From positions 1-45,424 of the forward strand of contig VXQO01000102.1 of assembly GCA_009838975.1 (NCBI GenBank): a stretch of DNA of 45,424 nt, written 5' to 3'. Numbering within the stretch: position 1 is the stretch's first letter; the number at the start of each line of letters is the position of its first letter. Under the pieces are notes generated by a model. The model was not told the origin of the DNA, searched no databases, and saw nothing but the letters and a program-made list of their open reading frames with translations. Of the stretch, positions 13,598-37,695 are shown one piece after another. Source of the DNA: Gemmatimonadota bacterium (GTDB taxonomy: Bacteria > Gemmatimonadota > Gemmatimonadetes > Longimicrobiales > Gaopeijiaceae). The position numbers were made by a program, and so were the translations under genes.

Positions 13598-14395
13598 TCA
13601 TGATCCACTCTCCGGTCCATACTCGGCCACCTCGGCCGCTCGGTGAACGACGCCCTCCGACCCCCACTCCTTCAGCGCCTGCGTGAGCACGCGGGCATTA
13701 AAACGACATCCGCTGACCTCTCCGCGCAGGCCGGCCAGGAATACGAAGGCGGGCCCCAGCTTCAGGGGATCTTCCCATCGCGCGCGGGTTGCGGGATCCG
13801 CACGCTCGGCCTGCCGCCGGGTCAGCGAAGTGGGCTTCAGCCGGATGCCCGGGGTGACCGCGTTGACGCTCACCCTCGATCCGGCGAGTTCCAGGGCGAG
13901 ACACCGGGTGAACGCCTCGATCCCGAACTTCGACGCGCAGTACGCGATCTGTGCGGGGAACCCCTCGACGCCCGCGCGCGAAGAGACGTTAACGATCGAG
14001 CCCCCCCGGCGCCGCAGCAGCGGAAGGAGGTCGCGGGTGAGGAACACCGGTGCCTCGAGGTTGACTCGCATGATGCGGTCCCAGTGTTCCCGGTCGAGCG
14101 CCTCGAGGGGTTGGCGCTCGAGCACCCCGGCGTTGTTGACGACGGCGCGCAGGTTGGCGGCTTCATCGGTGATCAGGCGGACCAGGCAATCGCGTCCGTC
14201 CTCGCGTGACAGGTCGACTGGACACACCTCCGCCCAGCCCCCCGCATCGTGAATCCGGTTGGCGGCCCACGCCAGTTCTTCCGGCACCTCTGCTGCCAGC
14301 CAGACTCGCGCGCCCGCCGCCGCCAGCGCAGCCGCGATCCCGCTCCCCAGCCCCCGCCCGGCTCCGGTGACCAGCACGTCGGTCTCTTCGAGCAT
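13598..14395 (-). CDS. Short-chain dehydrogenase/reductase
   Basis: A 265-aa classical SDR. The Rossmann motif VTGAGRGLGSG lies near the start, NNAG at mid-protein, Ser in VNVSSRAG, and the catalytic YCASK. The ATG at 14395 gives the usual few residues before the dinucleotide-binding loop and leaves the perfect palindrome at 14411-14431 upstream. GTG 14461 would extend the protein by 22 residues through that palindrome and is the alternative. Substrate is unknown; an alcohol or hydroxy-acid oxidation step in the surrounding catabolic cluster is plausible. Confidence 0.88.
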   Translation of the reverse strand: MLEETDVLVTGAGRGLGSGIAAALAAAGARVWLAAEVPEELAWAANRIHDAGGWAEVCPVDLSREDGRDCLVRLITDEAANLRAVVNNAGVLERQPLEALDREHWDRIMRVNLEAPVFLTRDLLPLLRRRGGSIVNVSSRAGVEGFPAQIAYCASKFGIEAFTRCLALELAGSRVSVNAVTPGIRLKPTSLTRRQAERADPATRARWEDPLKLGPAFVFLAGLRGEVSGCRFNARVLTQALKEWGSEGVVHRAAEVAEYGPESGS

Positions 14396-14410
14396 CTCTG
14401 TCGCAAAACG

Positions 14411-14431
14411 ACCCTGACGTAACGTCAGGGT
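14411..14431. promoter_or_regulatory. Perfect palindromic operator, copy 2
   Basis: A perfect 21-bp palindrome whose core is CCCTGACGTAACGTCAGGG, 15 bp upstream of the preferred SDR start. It matches the 10878-10900 site in 10-11 positions per arm. MerR-type regulators bind such odd-centred repeats between -35 and -10 boxes; I see no clear promoter boxes, so the class is only suggested. Confidence 0.55.
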
Positions 14432-14467
14432 AAAGCCGTCGCCCGCTTCGGGATCACTCACGCGCCC

Positions 14468-15631
14468 CTACCCCACCAGCGCCTGCACGAGCCATGCACA
14501 GCTGAATCCCAGGTAGTTGCCCAGCGCGTACCCGAAGATCCCCACGATGACCGCCGGCGCGACCAGGCGGTGCCATTTCATGGCCATCCCGATCGCCAGC
14601 GCCGAGCCGGGGCCACCGATGGCCGCCTGGCTTGCGATCGACACGGTGGGCAGGTCCACGCGCAGCAGCCAGCCGATCCCGTAGGCCACCAGCATGTGCA
14701 CGGCGATGATCGCGATCATGAAGGTGAAGATCGGCGCGCCCGCCTCGACGACCCTGCCCAGCTCGGACGCGGCTCCCAGCACGATGAAGAAGATGTGCAG
14801 CGCGAAATAGGAGAGCACCTCGGCGCCGCGCAGCTTCCTGACCCACGGCAGCTGTGCGACGATCAGCGCCATCGTGGTCAGCCAGAGGACTTCCGGGATC
14901 TGCGGCAGGATCCCGGTCAGGATCCGCGCCAGCCAAAGTGCGAGCAGCGGAAGGGCACCGAGAATCGCCAGATCGGTGATACTCATGTCGGAATCGGTCC
15001 AGCGCCGGCGCATGGCCTCTTCGTCGACGGCATCTCCCTCGGCGTCCGCGGCGGTCCGCGCCCACGCGCCGGCCAGCCGGGTCCGGCGCAGGAATACCGA
15101 CGCCAGGGCCCCCGCCAGCCACACCTGCAGCAGCAGATAGGGCACGGTCGACAGATTGTCGGCCAGCGCGGCCGCGGCGAAGGTGCTCGGGTCGGTGTCC
15201 AGCCCCTGGCCGACCGCGGCGAAGTTCATCCCCCCGCCCGCGAACGCTGCGGAGAAGGCCCCGGCGAGCTTCCATGTCTCCGGCCCGACCCATCCGGACA
15301 TCGTTACGCCCGCCGCAAAGCCGCCGATCAGACTGCCCACGCACGCCGCGACGTACGCCACGAGCAGCGGACGCCCGGCCGCGGCCAGCTCGCGCAGCTG
15401 CGTTCCCATGATCACCAGCACGATCGCGTATGGGATCGCGAAGGTGAACACGCCCTCGTGCACCGGCCCCGTGTGCTCGATCACCCCCACATTCGCGAGC
15501 GTGATCCCGAGCAGCGTGCACACCACCGCCGAACTGATCTTTTTGATCGCCTCGTACCGCTCCTCCAGCCAGCGCGCAAACGCCACCACCGCCAGCATGA
15601 AGGCCAGGACCAGCACCGGTTCTCGAATCAT
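14468..15631 (-). CDS. DUF819 family integral membrane protein
   Basis: A 387-aa polytopic protein with about ten hydrophobic segments, matching the DUF819 family (YjcL-like). The family pattern is seen in AFAGGGMNFAAVGQGL and in the C-terminal SIASQAAIGGPGSALAIGMAM. ATG 15631 begins directly at the first membrane helix. Function is not established for the family; the repeat-like glycine-rich segments resemble secondary transporters. It lies just before the SDR gene on the same strand with almost no gap, so co-transcription and a transport role for the same pathway are plausible but unproven. Confidence 0.8.
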   Translation of the reverse strand: MIREPVLVLAFMLAVVAFARWLEERYEAIKKISSAVVCTLLGITLANVGVIEHTGPVHEGVFTFAIPYAIVLVIMGTQLRELAAAGRPLLVAYVAACVGSLIGGFAAGVTMSGWVGPETWKLAGAFSAAFAGGGMNFAAVGQGLDTDPSTFAAAALADNLSTVPYLLLQVWLAGALASVFLRRTRLAGAWARTAADAEGDAVDEEAMRRRWTDSDMSITDLAILGALPLLALWLARILTGILPQIPEVLWLTTMALIVAQLPWVRKLRGAEVLSYFALHIFFIVLGAASELGRVVEAGAPIFTFMIAIIAVHMLVAYGIGWLLRVDLPTVSIASQAAIGGPGSALAIGMAMKWHRLVAPAVIVGIFGYALGNYLGFSCAWLVQALVG

Positions 15632-15674
15632 GGCGTTCCCGTCGATGCGGATTTGTTTTTTGGGGTCGCTGCGC

Positions 15675-16697
15675 TCAGGGCGATGCGGTCCCCGCGGCGA
15701 CCAGACCACGCACCTCGCCCCCGTCGCGTACGGCTACGAGGTTAGCCACCACGTCCCTGGCCATGCCAACCTGGCCGCCACCGGTGCCCCCGCCCACGTG
15801 CGGCGAGAAGAGCACGTTGGGCGCCCCGATCAGCGGGTTGTCGTGGGGGAGCGGCTCGTCGAGGAAGACGTCCAGCCCTGCGCCGGCGATCTGTCCCGAC
15901 TGCAGCGCGTCGAGGAGCGCGGCTTCGTCGACCAGGCCGCCCCGGGCAGTGTTCACGAGGATGGCGTCGCTTTTCATGAGGAGCAGCGCCTCGGCGTCGA
16001 TGATGTGCTCGGTGTGCCCGGTGTGCGGCGCGTGCAGGCTGACGATATCGCTCGCGGCGAGCAGTTCGGGCAGCGGCAGGTACCGCACGCCCGCCATCTG
16101 CTCGTGCCGGCGCGGCAGCGGCGAGCGCTTGTGGTACGCGACCTCCATGTCGAAGGCGCGGGCGCGCCGGGCGACTTCCAGACCGATGCCGCCCAGCCCC
16201 ACCAGGCCGAGGACCCGCCCGTGCAGCTGCCGGATATCGTCGTAGCCCAGCCAGTTGAAGGCGATCCTGCGCTCGGTGGTGCGGACCGGCTCCACTCCCA
16301 GCGCCCTGTAGTCCGCGTTGCGGGTCCCCCGGTGGCCGGGAACCAGCTTCCGGTACAGCCCGAGCATCAGGGCGATGGTCTGCTCGGCGACCGCGATCGC
16401 GCCACGGTGCGGAAGAACCGACACGGGAATGCCCGTCGCAGCCGCGGCCCGGGTCTCGACCGCCCACGGCGCGCGTCCCTGCACCTGGATCAGCCGCAGC
16501 CGTCCCGTCGCCCGAATGAGATCACCCCCGATCCGCCGCGCGGCCGTGACCAGCACGTCCGCTTCGGCGGCCGCGTCGCGGAGCCCGGTGCCGCGCAACT
16601 CCCCGCCCCACGCGATCTCCAAACCCGCTTCTGCGGCAGTCCGCTGAAAGAGCCCGCGGATCCATTCCGGGAGAGGTTCGATATGCAGGGTTCGCAA
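15675..16697 (-). CDS. D-isomer-specific 2-hydroxyacid dehydrogenase
   Basis: A 340-aa NAD-dependent dehydrogenase. The nucleotide-binding motif is GLVGLGGIGLEVARRA; catalytic Arg is in NTARGGLVDE; Glu is near LDVFLDEPLP; the catalytic His is in SPHVGGGTGGG. TTG 16697 is preceded by GAGG and gives a normal family length; upstream extension is possible but has no family similarity. The enzyme interconverts 2-keto and D-2-hydroxy acids. It is divergent from the permease/TRAP operon across a 94-bp gap, suggesting shared control. Confidence 0.9.
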   Translation of the reverse strand: MRTLHIEPLPEWIRGLFQRTAAEAGLEIAWGGELRGTGLRDAAAEADVLVTAARRIGGDLIRATGRLRLIQVQGRAPWAVETRAAAATGIPVSVLPHRGAIAVAEQTIALMLGLYRKLVPGHRGTRNADYRALGVEPVRTTERRIAFNWLGYDDIRQLHGRVLGLVGLGGIGLEVARRARAFDMEVAYHKRSPLPRRHEQMAGVRYLPLPELLAASDIVSLHAPHTGHTEHIIDAEALLLMKSDAILVNTARGGLVDEAALLDALQSGQIAGAGLDVFLDEPLPHDNPLIGAPNVLFSPHVGGGTGGGQVGMARDVVANLVAVRDGGEVRGLVAAGTASP

Positions 16698-33545: not shown

Positions 33546-34435
33546 TCATTTTCGACGCAACAACACTCGCCTGAGGAACCGGTTGCGGAACACGCCCCGC
33601 GGATCGAACGCCCTGCAAGTGGCTTCAAACTCCCCCAGTCCGGGATAGCCGCGCTCCACCCCGGCCCCGCCCGGAGGGAACCACTTGCCCCAGTGAAGGC
33701 GTGCGCCGAGAAGCGACGACATGCGGTCTGCCAGGGCAGCCACCACGCGCCGGAACGGCTCCCGTGGCTCGGTCAGCGTGATGAGGCTGATCGCATACCA
33801 GTCCTGCTCTTCGAGGCCGTGGCAGGAGGCCATTGAGATCAGTGTGTCGTCGGGCAGCACGCGACGGATGCAGATCGGGTAGTGGTGGACGTACGAACCG
33901 CGCTCGTCCGCCCGCCGCAGAGCCTCCACGACGAGATCGACCGCCGCCGCCAGGTGCTGGCGCGTGACGAACGCTTCCATCTCCAGGTGGCGAAAGAGGT
34001 CGTGCCGCATCAGGAGCTGCCGGTCGCTCCGGTCGGTGACGCACCACCGAGGGAAGATGAACGCCGGAAGAAGGCGTCGATAGAGCAGGTGTACGAGGCG
34101 ACGGCTCCGCATCAGCGAAGCGGAGAACTTCACGCAGAGGTGCAGCAGCACATCGATCACGGCCAGCCAGTACAGCCGATAGAGTGCCGCTCCCCCCGTC
34201 CGACGGTTCTCATCGGCCACGCTCCGTTCGTGCACGAGCCAGGTCCAGGCGTGCGGCATCAGGTAGAACTGCTGCAGCGGCGCCTTCCCCTCCCCTGCCA
34301 GCACGGCATCGAGATCGCGCCGCCAGACGGACCGCTCACGCACGTAGTATTGCGGCACGCAAGGCAGCGTCACCTCGAGGACGACGCCCATTGCCCCAAC
34401 CGAGCATCGCGCCGCCCGAAGCGCACTGCCGGAAT
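33546..34435 (-). pseudogene. FAD-linked oxidase (aldonolactone oxidase type), C-terminal part, split by the IS
   Basis: The 3' part of an oxidase gene whose 5' part lies at 37213-37695. It encodes the continuation ALRAARCSVGAMGVVLEV and the C-terminal D-arabinono-lactone/L-gulonolactone oxidase domain with HWGKWFPPG and FDPRGVFRNRF. The IS1595-type element plus one 8-bp duplication separates the halves. In silico removal joins GATTCCGGC to AGTGCGCTT in frame, giving a 447-aa protein of normal family length. The enzyme would oxidise a sugar lactone or related polyol with O2 or a dye acceptor. An upstream extension inside the IS stays open, but the N-terminal FAD site is lost, so this fragment is almost certainly inactive. 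Confidence 0.88.
34428..34435. repeat. Target site duplication, left copy
   Basis: GCCGGAAT directly outside the left terminal repeat, identical to 37234-37241. Eight bases is the usual duplication length for the IS1595 family. Confidence 0.95.
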
Positions 34436-34458
34436 GGGGCCTATATACATGAGTAACC
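34436..34458 (+). repeat. Left terminal inverted repeat
   Basis: Begins GGGGCCTATATACATG and ends AGTAACC. It is the exact reverse complement of 37211-37233 over 23 bp. The GGG start is usual for the family. Confidence 0.95.
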
Positions 34459-34641
34459 GGAAGGCAGCACACGTTCAAAATGTTGAACAAAAGCAAATGT
34501 CCAATTGTTGACGTGCAACGTGTTTGCGCTTTACCTTTATACATCGGAGGGTAGCGCCCGTCGGAGGGCAACACGTCTTAAAAACGTGGCCATGCTCATC
34601 ACAGCATGAGGGTTCGATTCCCTTACCTTCCGGTTACTCAT
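34449..34641. repeat. Internal inverted repeat linking the left TIR and the tRNA-Leu 3' end
   Basis: ATGAGTAACCGGAAGG (34449-34464) and CCTTCCGGTTACTCAT (34626-34641) are perfect 16-bp complements. The left arm covers the inner part of the terminal repeat; the right arm covers the 3' acceptor strand of the tRNA-Leu-like gene and its flank. A smaller hairpin, GTTCAA/TTGAAC, lies between them near 34480. Confidence 0.85.
34546..34632 (+). tRNA. tRNA-Leu (UAA)-like gene inside the IS
   Basis: A class II cloverleaf. Acceptor stem 34546-34552 / 34625-34631 (7 bp with one G-U), anticodon stem CACGT/ACGTG with loop CTTAAAA giving anticodon UAA, a long variable arm (CATGCT/AGCATG), and a T arm with loop TTCGATT. 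No CCA is encoded. The D arm is atypical (GCCC/GGGC with a six-base loop). It may be functional or a captured remnant; its 3' end merges with sequence matching the terminal repeat. Confidence 0.65.
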
Positions 34642-34643
34642 TT

Positions 34644-35541
34644 TTAGTAGCACTTATACAAAGGTTTTTCTGGATTATATACTTCATAATCTGCTATATA
34701 TCTATCATGTATATCAAGCGGCGGTATTAATGCAGCTTTTGTTATAGGAGTTATCACAATGCTGTCTGTTCTTGGTCCATATAAAGCCATTATATCATAT
34801 ATAGGCTCAATGCGCCCGTCAATATTTGCCCAATGAGAAATAGACGCACATTCATACCAGTGAAAACCAAATCTTCCATCAACAGGAAGTTTTCCATCAT
34901 AATAAACCCCGTGTTGTTTTCTTGCCTTGTCCCATTCATGTCTCCATATGGAATCTACTTTTGGATGTTCAGACCAATACCTGTCTCCTGCATATTTACC
35001 GTTTTCATCATATATGACTTCTCCCCCAATCCATAAGCATATGAAATATTTCATGCGCCCATATTGATTCCCATCCGCCAGAAGACGAGCTATACTCTAT
35101 TCGTCCTCCAAAAACATTATATGCATTTACAAATTCTTCATCGGTACATGGTGTAACACGAGCAATAGACGTACCAAATTTTGCATCAGTAAATACAGAT
35201 AAGTGGATTCCTTGTTTAATTGTATCTCCCTTTGCAAAATTCAATCCTCGGCAATACATATCTTTGTCGGATATGTATACTGAATCTGGAGATAGTGAAG
35301 TTTTGGACAGCATTGCAGAAATCTGTTCTATAGCATTGTTGAATGTTTCTATTTTTTGAGGATCAGAATCGGCTTCTTCGTTTGAGCCTCTAATCTGGTG
35401 AATATAAATAGGATATTTCCAAAGATCCGCTGGTACATTTTCTACTAACGGAGGACGATCAATTTTTGTTGATTCTAGAACAGATACCAGAGTGTTTTCT
35501 GTTACGCACCCACATATGACAGATACAATTAAAACTAAAAG
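34644..35541 (-). pseudogene. Frameshifted HExxH lipoprotein carried by the IS
   Basis: Two overlapping frames encode one protein of about 300 aa. The first part starts at a lipoprotein-like hydrophobic segment (LLVLIVSVICGC) and reaches HEIFHMLMDWG, a zinc-protease type HExxH motif. A run of five G near 35030 then throws the frame; with four G it continues as GEVIYDENGKYAGD in the second frame. A later YDIMALYG could be a Met-turn-like segment. There is no ATG before the signal segment: the frame runs straight into the antisense of tRNA-like 1, so the original start has been lost or displaced. Family is not identified beyond a possible metallopeptidase. Confidence 0.55.
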
Positions 35542-35542
35542 A

Positions 35543-35615
35543 GGCCCGGTGGCAGAATGGTTATGTACTTGGCCTTGCAATCCGAGAGATGTCGGTTCGA
35601 TTCCGACCCGGGCCT
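35543..35615 (+). tRNA. Cys-tRNA-like element 1, on an extended stem
   Basis: A 73-base cloverleaf: acceptor GGCCCGG/CCGGGCC, D arm with GG, T stem GTCGG/CCGAC with TTCGATT loop, and U73, a strong Cys identity base. The anticodon stem CTTGG/CCGAG encloses a nine-base loop, CCTTGCAAT, instead of seven, so the anticodon may be read as GCA (Cys) or UGC. Flanks 35531-35542 and 35615-35626 add 12 perfect base pairs below the acceptor stem. It lies antisense to the HExxH gene start. Confidence 0.5.
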
Positions 35616-35617
35616 CT

Positions 35618-35881
35618 TTTAGTTTTTGAATCAACAACATGATACTCTCCTGTCTAGCTGGCATTTTTTCTGCCCATTCATTCGGGCCGTTGCCAACACA
35701 ACAGGAGAAACCTTCGTGTCCCTGCCTATTTAGCTGTGGAATAAGCTCGGTAGCGATCCGATTTCTTATTCTCTTATTCAGCCTATTGTATTCAGCAGGT
35801 GGCCCGAAAAGACAGGCTCCCGCCGTGTTGGCAAATGAAAGGTAACTATTTTCAGCTCTTTCCGCAAGTGAAGAATAAAAA
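35618..35881 (-). CDS. Unrecognised open frame between two tRNA-like elements
   Basis: About 88 codons remain open between tRNA-like 1 and 2, encoding FYSSLAERAENSYLSFANT... to ...ESIMLLIQKLK. The first ATG comes only near the end (MPARQESIM), so any gene would start inside the antisense of tRNA-like 2, or this is a fragment. It has mixed charged and hydrophobic composition and no known motif. The frame continues through both antisense tRNAs, giving the well-known spurious peptide ARVGIEPT, so I give it little weight. Confidence 0.2.
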
Positions 35882-35954
35882 GGCCCGGTGGCAGAATGGC
35901 TATGTACTTGGCTTTGCAGGCTAAGAAATGTCGGTTCGATTCCGACCCGGGCCT
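35882..35954 (+). tRNA. Cys-tRNA-like element 2, on an extended stem
   Basis: A 73-base cloverleaf nearly identical to element 1 outside the anticodon arm: same acceptor, D arm, T arm and U73. The anticodon arm is CTTGG-CTTTGCAGG-CTAAG, again a nine-base loop, though a C-G pair can close it to seven bases with UGC central. Flanks 35868-35881 and 35954-35967 extend the stem by about 13 pairs with one mismatch. The right arm contains the stop codon of the 47-aa ORF. Confidence 0.5.
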
Positions 35955-35956
35955 CT

Positions 35957-36100
35957 TTATTCTTCATTTTTCTTATCTATTTCTTCTGGAAATGGCTCCA
36001 ACGCATCAGGAGGCAGAGACATAAGTTTCCGTGCAATGTTTTCTGGTGTATCTGGTATGCGCTTGGGCCATTTAGCTTTTTTGCCTTTTTTCTTTTTCAT
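35957..36100 (-). CDS. Small basic 47-aa protein of the IS
   Basis: ATG 36100 to TAA 35957. The N-terminus is extremely Lys-rich (MKKKKGKKAKWPKR), followed by IPDTPENIARKLMSLPPDALEPF and an acidic tail. The PDTPENIARxLM pattern looks like a small protein I associate with ISXO2-type elements, but I cannot name the family with certainty. The sequence around its start (TGACCAAATGAA) duplicates the transposase stop, suggesting the two ORFs once overlapped as ATGA and were translated together. A nucleic-acid binding or transposition-control role is plausible from its charge (inference). Confidence 0.6.
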   Translation of the reverse strand: MKKKKGKKAKWPKRIPDTPENIARKLMSLPPDALEPFPEEIDKKNEE

Positions 36101-36138
36101 TTGGTCAAATGCGCCTTGTTTTTATGAACAACGAAGAA

Positions 36139-36211
36139 GATCCGGTGGCAGAATGGATATGCGCCCGGACTTGCAAGCTGGGAGACGTCGGTTCGATTCC
36201 GACCCGGATCT
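36139..36211 (+). tRNA. Cys-tRNA-like element 3, on an extended stem
   Basis: A 73-base cloverleaf with a different acceptor, GATCCGG/CCGGATC, and the same D-arm, T-arm and U73 pattern. Anticodon arm CCCGG-ACTTGCAAG-CTGGG has a nine-base loop. Flanks 36124-36138 and 36211-36225 add 15 pairs with one G-U. It lies exactly between the transposase stop, which is inside the right flank arm, and the 47-aa ORF start. Confidence 0.5.
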
Positions 36212-36221
36212 TTTTCGTTGT

Positions 36222-37146
36222 TCATTTGGTCAGTTTCTTCCAGGTGAGGATTTTTCCTTCTAGACTGCGAGCTACCTTTTGCATTTGTGTTCTTATGCTC
36301 ATCTTTCGGACATTGTGTTTCCATGCAAACTCATCAGCATATCTTTGTAGATGTTTTGGAGACATATAATGAAACGTTCCTTTGTGAGCGCGTTTCAACA
36401 TAGACCAAAAACTTTCTAGACCATTGGTATGTACATCGCCTCTTACAAATTCACCACGAGAATGACAAACCTTTTTGTGGTAATGATGAGCATTAGTATA
36501 TACTCTGCTTTCATCTGTATACAATTTCGCTCGTCCATGCAGCTTTTCAGATAGAAAATCATATACTGAATCCATTGTTACGCCATCTGGCATAACTCGG
36601 GCGTATACATGATTACTGAATCTATCTTTCATTCCAACAACAGGTGTCTTTGTACCAATCGGCCCTTTGCGAGCTTTCTTCTTTGCATGTTTGTTTTTCT
36701 CTAATCCTCCTACATAAGTCTCGTCAGCTTCAACAGGACCAATAAAATGTTGCATTGGAGTTTGAAGCTTCCAACCTTCACGAATTCTGTGAGCAAGAAA
36801 CCAGGCAGTTTTTTGGGTTATTCCTAATTCTTTATGAAGTTGTACGGATGACATACCTTTAGGATGATTGGCCATAAGATATATAGCAACGGCCCAAACT
36901 CTATATCCTAACTTGCTATTCTGCATCACAGTACCAGTTTTCACAGAAAAGAATTTTCTACAATCTCTGCATCTATGAGGCATTGTTGGATGCGTAGTCT
37001 TTTTTTTGCGTATTCATAGATTCGCATTTTGGACACACTGGACAGCCGAAATCTCCCCATCTGACTTGTTGAAACCATTTCTCGGCCGTATTATCGTCCG
37101 GAAACATTTCCATTAGCTTGAAAAGAGAAAACGGCTTTTTGAACAT
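36222..37146 (-). pseudogene. ISXO2-like transposase, frameshifted in an A8 run
   Basis: Two frames encode one IS1595-family transposase of about 310 aa. The first (36973-37146, 57 aa, ATG 37146) has the N-terminal helix and the first zinc-ribbon knuckle (CPVC). The second (36222-36983) starts with the second knuckle (CRDC), then the HTH-like region and the DDE-type catalytic domain: D87 in VEADETYVGG, D157 in YTDES, and HTNGLESFW carrying the Asn/Glu of the family. The frames meet around eight A (T at 37000-37007 on the plus strand); seven A would join them. It could be decay, sequence error, or controlled slippage on the A run. All catalytic residues are intact. Confidence 0.85.
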
Positions 37147-37210
37147 GGCGCATCCTAATCTTGAGTATACAGCTACCGCGTCGGTAATATAACACCAGTG
37201 TCAACCCCTT

Positions 37211-37233
37211 GGTTACTCATGTATATAGGCCCC
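37211..37233 (-). repeat. Right terminal inverted repeat
   Basis: Starts GGTTACTCATGTATAT on the plus strand and ends AGGCCCC; the exact complement of the left repeat. Confidence 0.95.
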
Positions 37234-37695
37234 GCCGGAATCGACGGTGCGGACCCGCGCCTTCCCATCCCTTCCGTAGCACGCGATCCGCATGGACTCG
37301 ACGTAGTGCGACATGGAGTGCCGTCCCGAGCCGTGAGTCCCCGTCGCGGCCGCGCCAGCCACCGTCTGGCGGTCGATGAGCCCGATCGAGGGCAGCGTCA
37401 GGCCCCGTTTTGACAGGTGTTTGAGAAGGGCGCCGATCCTGACCCCGGCTCCCGCCGTCACGCGCCTGCGGTCACCCTGCACATGCACGCGTGCGAGATG
37501 GCGCAGGTCGACGAGCGCATCGGCGGTCTCGATTCCCCCGTTCCACGAGTGCCCGGCTCCGAGCACCCGCACCGTTCCGTCCCGGTGCCTGTCGAGTATT
37601 AGGAGGACCTCCTCTTCACTGAGCGGACGGTACCTGTGCCGGGGAGTGAAACTGATGTTCCTGCCGAAGTTGGAGATCGGGGCGACGCCCCTCAC
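37213..37695 (-). pseudogene. FAD-linked oxidase, N-terminal part, split by the IS
   Basis: GTG 37695 overlaps the ABC ATPase stop (GTGA), making this the last gene of the peptide ABC operon. It encodes the FAD-binding PCMH-type half: VRVLGAGHSW, with a His in the place used for covalent FAD in aldonolactone oxidases, then VTAGAGVRIGALLKHL and SIGLIDRQTVAGAAATGTHGSG. Host sequence ends at 37234; the reading frame then adds seven codons of IS sequence and stops at TAA 37213. The residual 160-aa protein lacks the substrate domain. The rest is at 33546-34435. Confidence 0.9.
37234..37241. repeat. Target site duplication, right copy
   Basis: GCCGGAAT, identical to 34428-34435, directly outside the right terminal repeat. 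Confidence 0.95.

What the first reader, a model, noticed from the sequence alone, without database searches (positions are those of the whole stretch)
35531..36225. Three Cys-tRNA-like cloverleaves with nine-base anticodon loops, each crowning a long stem of unrelated sequence
Seen: 35543-35615, 35882-35954 and 36139-36211 are 73-base cloverleaves with normal 7-bp acceptor and 5-bp T stems, a TTCGATT loop and U73. All three have two extra anticodon-loop bases around a TTGCA or TTTGCAG core. Each acceptor stem is prolonged by flanking DNA: 12, about 13 and 15 further pairs, giving stems of roughly 19-22 bp. The extension sequences differ between copies, so pairing is kept while sequence is not, which is covariation. 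Known: ordinary tRNA genes have no such extended stems, and U73 is a Cys identity base. Inference: these are structured RNAs or DNA hairpins, possibly mobile, built on a tRNA scaffold. Candidate roles are terminators, transposase or RNase P targets, or recoding tRNAs.
Basis: partly seen in the sequence, partly recalled or inferred. Interest (0 to 1): 0.82.

Follow-up and report, generated by a model that had tools for sequence, protein, structure and literature searches.

The report
Odd tRNA-Cys copies inside a transposon
A foreign jumping gene (IS1595 type) in this bacterium carries three altered copies of a cysteine tRNA with an over-long anticodon loop, each sitting on its own extra-long DNA hairpin; they are real and unusual, but only this one example was found, so whether they act in translation or are merely mobile hairpin-forming leftovers is open.

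Summary
Three 73-nt cloverleaves (48-51 bits to Rfam tRNA) have 9-nt anticodon loops with an invariant TTGCA followed by a purine. Their acceptor stems run on into the flanks for 12, 15 of 16 and 15 pairs; 42 other tRNAs show 0-5. They lie in a 2798-bp low-GC IS1595-family transposon (perfect 23-bp inverted ends, 8-bp target duplication) cutting a host oxidase gene. The body is 89% identical to ordinary tRNA-Cys of small-genome Proteobacteria but 69% to the host's, so it is foreign.

The arms arose separately at each site, so 'covariation' does not apply to them. Copy 3 appears inserted between transposase and next gene (12-bp direct repeat), and copy 1 within a signal peptide. Inside the core, four compensatory pair changes and one-sided G-U pairs point to a folded plus-strand RNA.

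Best reading: tRNA-Cys-derived, non-canonical tRNA genes carried and multiplied inside a now frameshifted transposon, with hairpin arms made by fold-back template switching. No further copy was found among about 400 related genomes, IMG/VR, phages or plasmids.

The parts
34436..37233 (.). IS1595-family transposon (2798 bp, about 42% GC in a 66% GC genome) that holds all the tRNA-like units
   Evidence: 23-bp perfect inverted repeats; 8-bp target duplication GCCGGAAT; GC drop; DDE_Tnp_IS1595 5.9e-33
34436..34458 (+). left terminal inverted repeat GGGGCCTATATACATGAGTAACC
37211..37233 (+). right terminal inverted repeat GGTTACTCATGTATATAGGCCCC
34428..34435 (+). target duplication, left copy GCCGGAAT
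37234..37241 (+). target duplication, right copy GCCGGAAT
35543..35615 (+). copy 1: tRNA-Cys-derived cloverleaf, 9-nt anticodon loop CCTTGCAAT, U73
35531..35542 (+). copy 1: 5' extension arm, pairs with 35615-35626 (12 bp, U73 included)
   Evidence: (I6)
35615..35626 (+). copy 1: 3' extension arm
35882..35954 (+). copy 2: cloverleaf, loop CTTTGCAGG, U73
35866..35881 (+). copy 2: 5' extension arm (15 of 16 pairs)
   Evidence: (I2)
35954..35969 (+). copy 2: 3' extension arm
36139..36211 (+). copy 3: cloverleaf, loop ACTTGCAAG, U73; two acceptor pairs changed on both sides
36124..36138 (+). copy 3: 5' extension arm (15 pairs)
   Evidence: (I3)
36211..36225 (+). copy 3: 3' extension arm
36096..36107 (+). 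12-bp direct repeat TTCATTTGGTCA on one side of copy 3
36221..36232 (+). 12-bp direct repeat TTCATTTGGTCA on the other side of copy 3
34546..34632 (+). fourth tRNA-like gene: class II, long variable arm, UAA anticodon, G73, no U8; fits the tRNA-Sec model (41.2 bits) better than the tRNA model (30.1). Its 3' end plus flank (34626-34641) is complementary to 34449-34464 at the left transposon end
   Evidence: (I4)
36222..36983 (-). IS1595 transposase, catalytic part (DDE)
36973..37146 (-). IS1595 transposase, N-terminal zinc ribbon, out of frame with the DDE part; the A8 run 37000-37007 is where a +1 shift would join them
35957..36100 (-). 47-aa accessory protein (PDTPENIA motif), shared with several related IS1595 transposons; its stop codon lies in copy 2's arm
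35008..35563 (-). cargo gene, N-terminal half (lipoprotein-like, HEIFH motif); copy 1 sits in its signal-peptide region
34644..35054 (-). cargo gene, C-terminal half, split from the first by a +1 shift at the G5 run 35023-35027
37242..37695 (-). host FAD-linked oxidase gene, 5' part interrupted by the transposon
33546..34427 (-). host FAD-linked oxidase gene, 3' part; joining the flanks gives one open frame

Best explanation
These are three diverged copies of a tRNA-Cys-derived, non-canonical tRNA gene with a 9-nt anticodon loop, carried and multiplied inside an IS1595-family transposon that entered this GC-rich genome from a low-GC bacterium. SHOWN: the transposon and its target duplication; the cloverleaf with a maintained body and TTGCAR loop; the per-site arms; transposase and cargo genes frameshifted as they stand. 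INFERRED: (1) a proteobacterial-type tRNA-Cys was captured by the transposon and its anticodon arm remodelled and lengthened by two bases; (2) copies were inserted between or into the minus-strand genes (copy 3 at the transposase/47-aa gene junction, copy 1 into a signal peptide); (3) the strong acceptor stem then primed fold-back template switching during replication, which copied the flank of one side in inverted form to the other and lengthened each stem with site-specific sequence; (4) the plus-strand RNA folded as a tRNA and was under selection for that fold, either as a minor tRNA or because spread of the unit needs the fold.
For: Transposon anatomy: 23-bp perfect ends, 8-bp duplication, intact oxidase frame when the flanks are joined. 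tRNA origin: body 48/54 identical to canonical tRNA-Cys of the G440 order against 37/54 to the host's own; change relative to those is concentrated in the anticodon arm. Selection on the fold: 20/20 pairs in all copies, 4 pairs changed on both sides, reached by 12 of 500 column shuffles; 5 G-U cells and no A-C cells in the core, which favours a plus-strand RNA. Loop core TTGCAR kept while neighbouring bases vary. Arms not homologous between copies: alignment scores no better than shuffled letters (28-96% of shuffles reach the score), 5-6 of 12 identical while cores are 57-66 of 73. Insertion signs: 12-bp direct repeat around copy 3; arms contain the stop codons of the transposase and the 47-aa gene. 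Template switching is a documented way to make perfect stems in one event (PMC8794818). tRNA cargo recurs: another complete IS1595 transposon in the same genus carries a different tRNA (L060).
Against: No second example of the unit anywhere, so the order of events rests on one locus. The compensatory-pair statistic rests on three sequences. U33 and the Cys anticodon are intact only if the two extra bases lie 5' of U33; whether a 9-nt loop works in decoding is untested. No convincing plus-strand promoter was found. Direct repeats flank only copy 3. In copy 1 the outer 6 bp of the arm may predate the insertion if the inferred ancestral signal peptide is right, which would fit insertion into an existing palindrome instead.
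Confidence: 0.5

Rival explanations
1. Mobile palindromic elements: the tRNA-derived hairpin is itself a small dispersing unit, like Rickettsia palindromic elements or a bacterial counterpart of tRNA-derived SINEs, which invades genes and operons and makes or chooses inverted arms when it inserts.
For: Three copies at unrelated sites in 800 bp, with cores 78-90% identical; a 12-bp direct repeat around copy 3; copies 1 and 2 lie in frame in a minus-strand ORF and are read as EARVGIEPT..SATGP; arms unique to each site; copy 1's inferred empty site contains a short palindrome.
Against: No copy outside this transposon in the own genome, 98 relatives, 394 class genomes, 395 phylum genomes, IMG/VR, phages or plasmids. 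A self-dispersing element should be repeated. No direct repeats at copies 1 and 2.
Confidence: 0.2
2. Functional minor tRNAs carried as cargo, comparable to allo-tRNAs and selC* tRNA-Cys: they decode Cys codons or unusual codons, or replace tRNA-Cys cut by a host nuclease, and the long stem is a processing or stability feature.
For: Maintained body, U73, GCA within TTGCAR, compensatory pairs; a fourth, Sec-like tRNA in the same element; tRNA in another transposon of the genus (L060); non-canonical tRNAs with links to transposons are described (PMC7609411); element genes hold 24 Cys codons in 677 against 41 in 4851 in sampled host genes.
Against: A -1:U73 pair and 12-16 further pairs should hinder RNase P and 3' processing; copy 3 lost the G2-C71 and C3-G70 pairs seen in copies 1 and 2; no promoter; the element's own genes are frameshifted, so the whole copy looks inactive.
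Confidence: 0.2
3. Intergenic hairpins of the minus-strand operon: bidirectional terminators or mRNA 3' ends that happen to have been built from a tRNA gene.
For: A-rich 5' arms and T-rich 3' arms on both strands; stop codons of transposase and 47-aa gene fall inside the arms; both strands fold strongly.
Against: Does not need TTCGATT, GG in the D loop, U73 or TTGCAR; the core's G-U pairs would be A-C mismatches in minus-strand RNA.
Confidence: 0.07
4. Simple decay: tandem or dispersed pseudogene copies of a tRNA-Cys in a dead transposon, the fold kept only by chance and short time.
For: Transposase and cargo genes are both frameshifted; single-copy element.
Against: 16 of 73 positions differ between copies 2 and 3 without one broken pair, 4 pairs changed on both sides, and a shared 9-nt loop and TTGCAR.
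Confidence: 0.03

Closest known systems
IS1595-family transposons with passenger genes
   Same: DDE_Tnp_IS1595 transposase with N-terminal zinc ribbon, terminal inverted repeats beginning GGG, 8-bp target duplication, accessory and cargo genes; close relatives abundant in the same genus
   Different: four tRNA-like genes as cargo, three of them non-canonical tRNA-Cys; transposase needs a +1 shift as it stands
allo-tRNAs and selC* tRNA-Cys (reviewed in PMC7609411)
   Same: non-canonical bacterial tRNAs, some of Cys type with U73, one reported to overlap a transposon-related ORF; the fourth gene here is class II with G73 and a non-Ser anticodon
   Different: the three copies have an ordinary 7/5 acceptor/T branch and a short variable loop; their oddity is the 9-nt anticodon loop and the outward extension of the acceptor stem
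Canonical tRNA-Cys (GCA)
   Same: body 89% identical to tRNA-Cys of the G440 order, U73, same D and T arms
   Different: two extra anticodon-loop bases, remodelled anticodon stem, no 3' single-stranded end because U73 and the flank are paired
Rickettsia/Wolbachia palindromic elements (from own knowledge; only genome papers found)
   Same: about 100-bp hairpin units inside reading frames, site-specific surroundings
   Different: tRNA body with conserved T loop; only three copies, all in one transposon
Quasipalindrome and template-switch hairpins (PMC8794818)
   Same: perfect inverted arms of local sequence around a pre-existing stem, made in single events
   Different: here all three copies of a tRNA gene show it, with 12-16 pairs each

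Membership tests
IS1595-family transposon | IS1595-type DDE transposase with zinc ribbon | tested here: met
   PF12762 5.9e-33, PF12760 9.7e-6, NF033547 2.4e-51; the two parts are in different frames
IS1595-family transposon | terminal inverted repeats and 8-bp target duplication | tested here: met
   23/23 bp and GCCGGAAT on both sides
IS1595-family transposon | active transposition | not testable with these tools
   transposase frameshifted at A8; slippage or trans supply possible
functional tRNA-Cys | cloverleaf with 7/5 acceptor branch, T loop, U73 | tested here: met
   Rfam 48-51 bits, 20/20 pairs
functional tRNA-Cys | 7-nt anticodon loop with U33-GCA | tested here: not met
   9 nt in all copies; TGCA present but with two extra bases
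functional tRNA-Cys | free acceptor end for processing and CCA addition | tested here: inconclusive
   U73 and the flank are predicted to be paired; processing cannot be tested
functional tRNA-Cys | transcribed, processed, charged | not testable with these tools
   no promoter above the shuffled number found
allo-tRNA / selC* tRNA-Cys | 8/4 or 9/3 acceptor branch and long variable arm | tested here: not met
   three copies are 7/5 with a 4-nt variable loop
allo-tRNA (fourth gene, 34546-34632) | 12-bp acceptor branch as 8/4 or 9/3, long variable arm, Ser identity (G73) | tested here: inconclusive
   long arm and G73 present; the 12 bp can be drawn as 7/5, 8/4 or 9/3; tRNA-Sec model 41.2 bits, below its cut-off of 47, against 30.1 for tRNA, while ordinary host Leu/Ser tRNAs score the other way round
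self-dispersing palindromic element | many copies at unrelated sites in the genome | tested here: not met
   only the three in this transposon
covarying RNA stem (the extension arms) | homologous arms that change on both sides | tested here: not met
   arms of different copies no more alike than shuffled

The most novel reading that the evidence does not exclude
A tRNA-Cys-derived unit with an enlarged anticodon loop that spreads inside bacterial operons and builds inverted arms from each target site: a bacterial, tRNA-based mobile hairpin, carried between phyla by an IS1595 transposon and possibly still decoding with a 4- or 5-base anticodon (UGCA or UUGCA).
Probability: 0.13. Interest if true: 0.8.

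Novelty: new variant of a known kind. Interest (0 to 1): 0.47.

Why it matters
Non-canonical tRNAs linked to transposons have been noted before but their carriers are poorly known. This locus gives a complete carrier with exact ends, shows an anticodon arm rebuilt in three parallel versions on one tRNA body, and shows long, almost perfectly paired stems that look like covariation yet arose separately at each site. It is a caution for reading covariation from few copies and a test case for template switching around tRNA genes.

Tried and rejected
Recoding of the element's own frameshifts by the 9-nt-loop tRNAs: both the transposase (A8, 37000-37007) and the cargo gene (G5, 35023-35027) need a +1 shift, but neither context holds UGCA or UGCAA at the shift, so plain indels or slippage in homopolymers are preferred. 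Host origin of the tRNA-Cys: rejected, body 37/54 against 48/54 for foreign tRNA-Cys. Duplication of core and arms together: not supported, the arms are not detectably homologous. General habit of IS1595 tRNA cargo to have long stems: rejected, the tRNAs of L057 and L060 have 0-1 flank pairs. Searches without result: 9-nt-loop patterns in IMG/VR, blastn in phages and plasmids, whole element in plasmids, cargo proteins in IMG/VR (both halves), phages (C-terminal half) and plasmids (N-terminal half), CM search in 36 genomes of the G440 order (only ordinary 71-nt tRNA-Cys). Integron attC sites were considered and dropped: no integrase was seen among the element's genes and the units have tRNA, not attC, architecture.
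Full report
CHECK. Rfam's tRNA model finds each at 48-51 bits, ARAGORN as well, though it reads the enlarged loop as an Ala anticodon. The drawn cloverleaf has all 20 pairs in all three copies. The anticodon loops are CCTTGCAAT, CTTTGCAGG and ACTTGCAAG. Copy 2 can close one more C-G pair to give a 7-nt loop; copies 1 and 3 would need C-T or A-G there. Base pairing continues outward from the acceptor stem for 12 pairs (copy 1), 15 of 16 (copy 2) and 15 (copy 3). Among 42 other tRNAs, mostly of this genome, the same count gives 0 to 5, and at other places in the same element 13 or more pairs occur at a rate of 1.2e-5. So the feature is real and far beyond chance.

CONTEXT. Composition falls from about 66% to about 40% GC between 34.4 and 37.2 kb. 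The island is bounded by a perfect 23-bp inverted repeat, 34436-34458 and 37211-37233, and by an 8-bp direct duplication, GCCGGAAT. It encodes an IS1595-family transposase on the minus strand. Joining the flanks restores one open frame for an FAD-linked oxidase. This is therefore a recently inserted, horizontally acquired IS1595-family transposon of 2798 bp. Relatives of its transposase at 50-59% identity are common in the same genus and family, and for many of them I could define ends and target duplications. The host belongs to a phylum of which only about 440 species were reached by the searches; its name is not given by the tools.

STATE OF THE ELEMENT. The zinc-ribbon part (36973-37146) and the catalytic part (36222-36983) of the transposase are in different frames, with an A8 run at the join; seven A would make one protein. 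The cargo gene is also split: a genome of the same genus (G016) has one protein that matches both ORF 35008-35967 (its last part, 66%) and ORF 34644-35054 (57%) in a single frame; here a G5 run separates them. The copy now looks inactive, or dependent on slippage or help in trans. A 47-aa protein with a PDTPENIA motif between transposase and cargo is shared with several related transposons.

THE tRNA BODIES. Outside the anticodon arm, copy 1 is 48 of 54 identical to the ordinary 71-nt tRNA-Cys of genomes in the order of G440, a small-genome proteobacterial MAG that itself holds a related IS1595 transposon (L034), but only 37 of 54 identical to this genome's own tRNA-Cys. The units are foreign tRNA-Cys derivatives. 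The change is concentrated in the anticodon arm, which is two bases longer and has three different stem sequences. Four pairs of the core are changed on both sides between copies, two in the acceptor and two in the anticodon stem; 12 of 500 column shuffles reach this. The core holds five G-U cells and no A-C cell, which favours a plus-strand RNA, the opposite strand from the genes. TTGCA followed by a purine is kept in all loops while the other loop positions vary.

THE ARMS. Cores are 57-66 of 73 identical between copies. The arms are 5-6 of 12 identical, and their alignment scores are reached by 28-96% of letter shuffles. Each arm was made, or found, at its site. The transposase stop codon and the 47-aa gene's stop codon lie in the arms of copies 3 and 2. 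Copy 3 is flanked by a 12-bp direct repeat, TTCATTTGGTCA; an empty site without the 125 bp between repeat starts would have an ATGA overlap of transposase stop and next start, a common arrangement in operons. Copy 1 splits what reads as a lipoprotein signal peptide, MLLIQKL / LVLIVSVICGC, in frame (inference from the sequence). Fold-back template switching, known to produce and repair perfect stems in single events (PMC8794818), needs only the 7-bp GC-rich acceptor stem as primer and would give exactly such site-specific arms. Insertion into existing palindromes, or arms made by a dispersal mechanism of the unit itself, are the alternatives. A related sign: the fourth tRNA-like gene has its 3' acceptor strand and flank (CCTTCCGGTTACTCAT) inverted 16 of 16 at the left end of the transposon, about 80 bp upstream of its 5' end, so inverted copying around tRNA ends seems to have happened there too.

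THE FOURTH GENE. 34546-34632 has a long variable arm, anticodon UAA, G73, no U8 and a tight D loop. It scores 41.2 bits with the tRNA-Sec model (cut-off 47) and 30.1 with the tRNA model; the host's ordinary Leu(UAA) tRNA scores 45.3 and 59.6. It resembles the Sec-like allo-tRNAs with sense anticodons reviewed in PMC7609411, where a link to a transposon-related ORF is mentioned. Membership is not settled.

tRNA CARGO ELSEWHERE. Among related IS1595 loci, one complete transposon in the same genus (L060, ends and 8-bp duplication found) carries a tRNA with anticodon GCU, and L057 has a class II tRNA with anticodon UGG close to its transposase. Neither has long arms. So tRNA cargo recurs in this transposon group, but extended stems are particular to this element.

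DISTRIBUTION. The unit was not found elsewhere in its own genome, in 98 relatives by blast, in 394 genomes of the class by covariance model (one further hit of 71 nt is an ordinary tRNA-Cys), in 395 genomes of the phylum by pattern, in IMG/VR, or in phage and plasmid records. These genome samples overlap. Everything rests on one locus with three copies.

CONCLUSION. Non-canonical, foreign tRNA-Cys genes carried as multiplied cargo of an IS1595-family transposon, with selection on the RNA fold of the core and hairpin arms of mutational origin, is the best-supported reading (about 0.5). A self-spreading tRNA-based hairpin and a working minor tRNA are the serious rivals.

Noticed in passing
window 36973-37146 and 36222-36983 (A8 at 37000-37007): IS1595 transposase halves in different frames; one A fewer would join them. 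Could be decay, or transcriptional slippage on A8.
   Followed up: partly
window 34644-35563; L121 (G016:C62, ORF 14371-16545): Cargo gene with HEIFH motif split by a G5 run; a related genome has both halves in one protein, in a low-GC patch of its own, with no IS1595 transposase found nearby.
   Followed up: partly
L060 2196-2270 (G019:C9): Complete IS1595 transposon in the same genus carries a tRNA with anticodon GCU, a body unlike tRNA-Ser (short variable loop), and a C-U mismatch at the top of the anticodon stem.
   Followed up: partly
L057 5233-5319 (G252:C271): Class II tRNA with anticodon UGG (Pro) and A73-CCA just downstream of an IS1595 transposase; looks like a Leu-type body with a Pro anticodon. 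Transposon ends not found.
   Followed up: no
window 35690-35707 and 35817-35834: 18-bp inverted repeat (83%) around 109 bp of sequence between copies 1 and 2, with no relative found.
   Followed up: no
window 34449-34464 and 34626-34641: 16-nt perfect inverted copy of the fourth tRNA's 3' acceptor strand plus flank at the inner side of the left transposon end.
   Followed up: partly
window 35957-36100: 47-aa PDTPENIA protein recurs in many related IS1595 transposons (L031, L059, L060, L061, L066, L067, L091): an accessory protein without a Pfam or NCBIfam match.
   Followed up: partly
G000:C79:1-78 (L115): A tRNA-Sec gene of the host cut by a contig end (55.8 bits), which suggests the host uses selenocysteine.
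   Followed up: no
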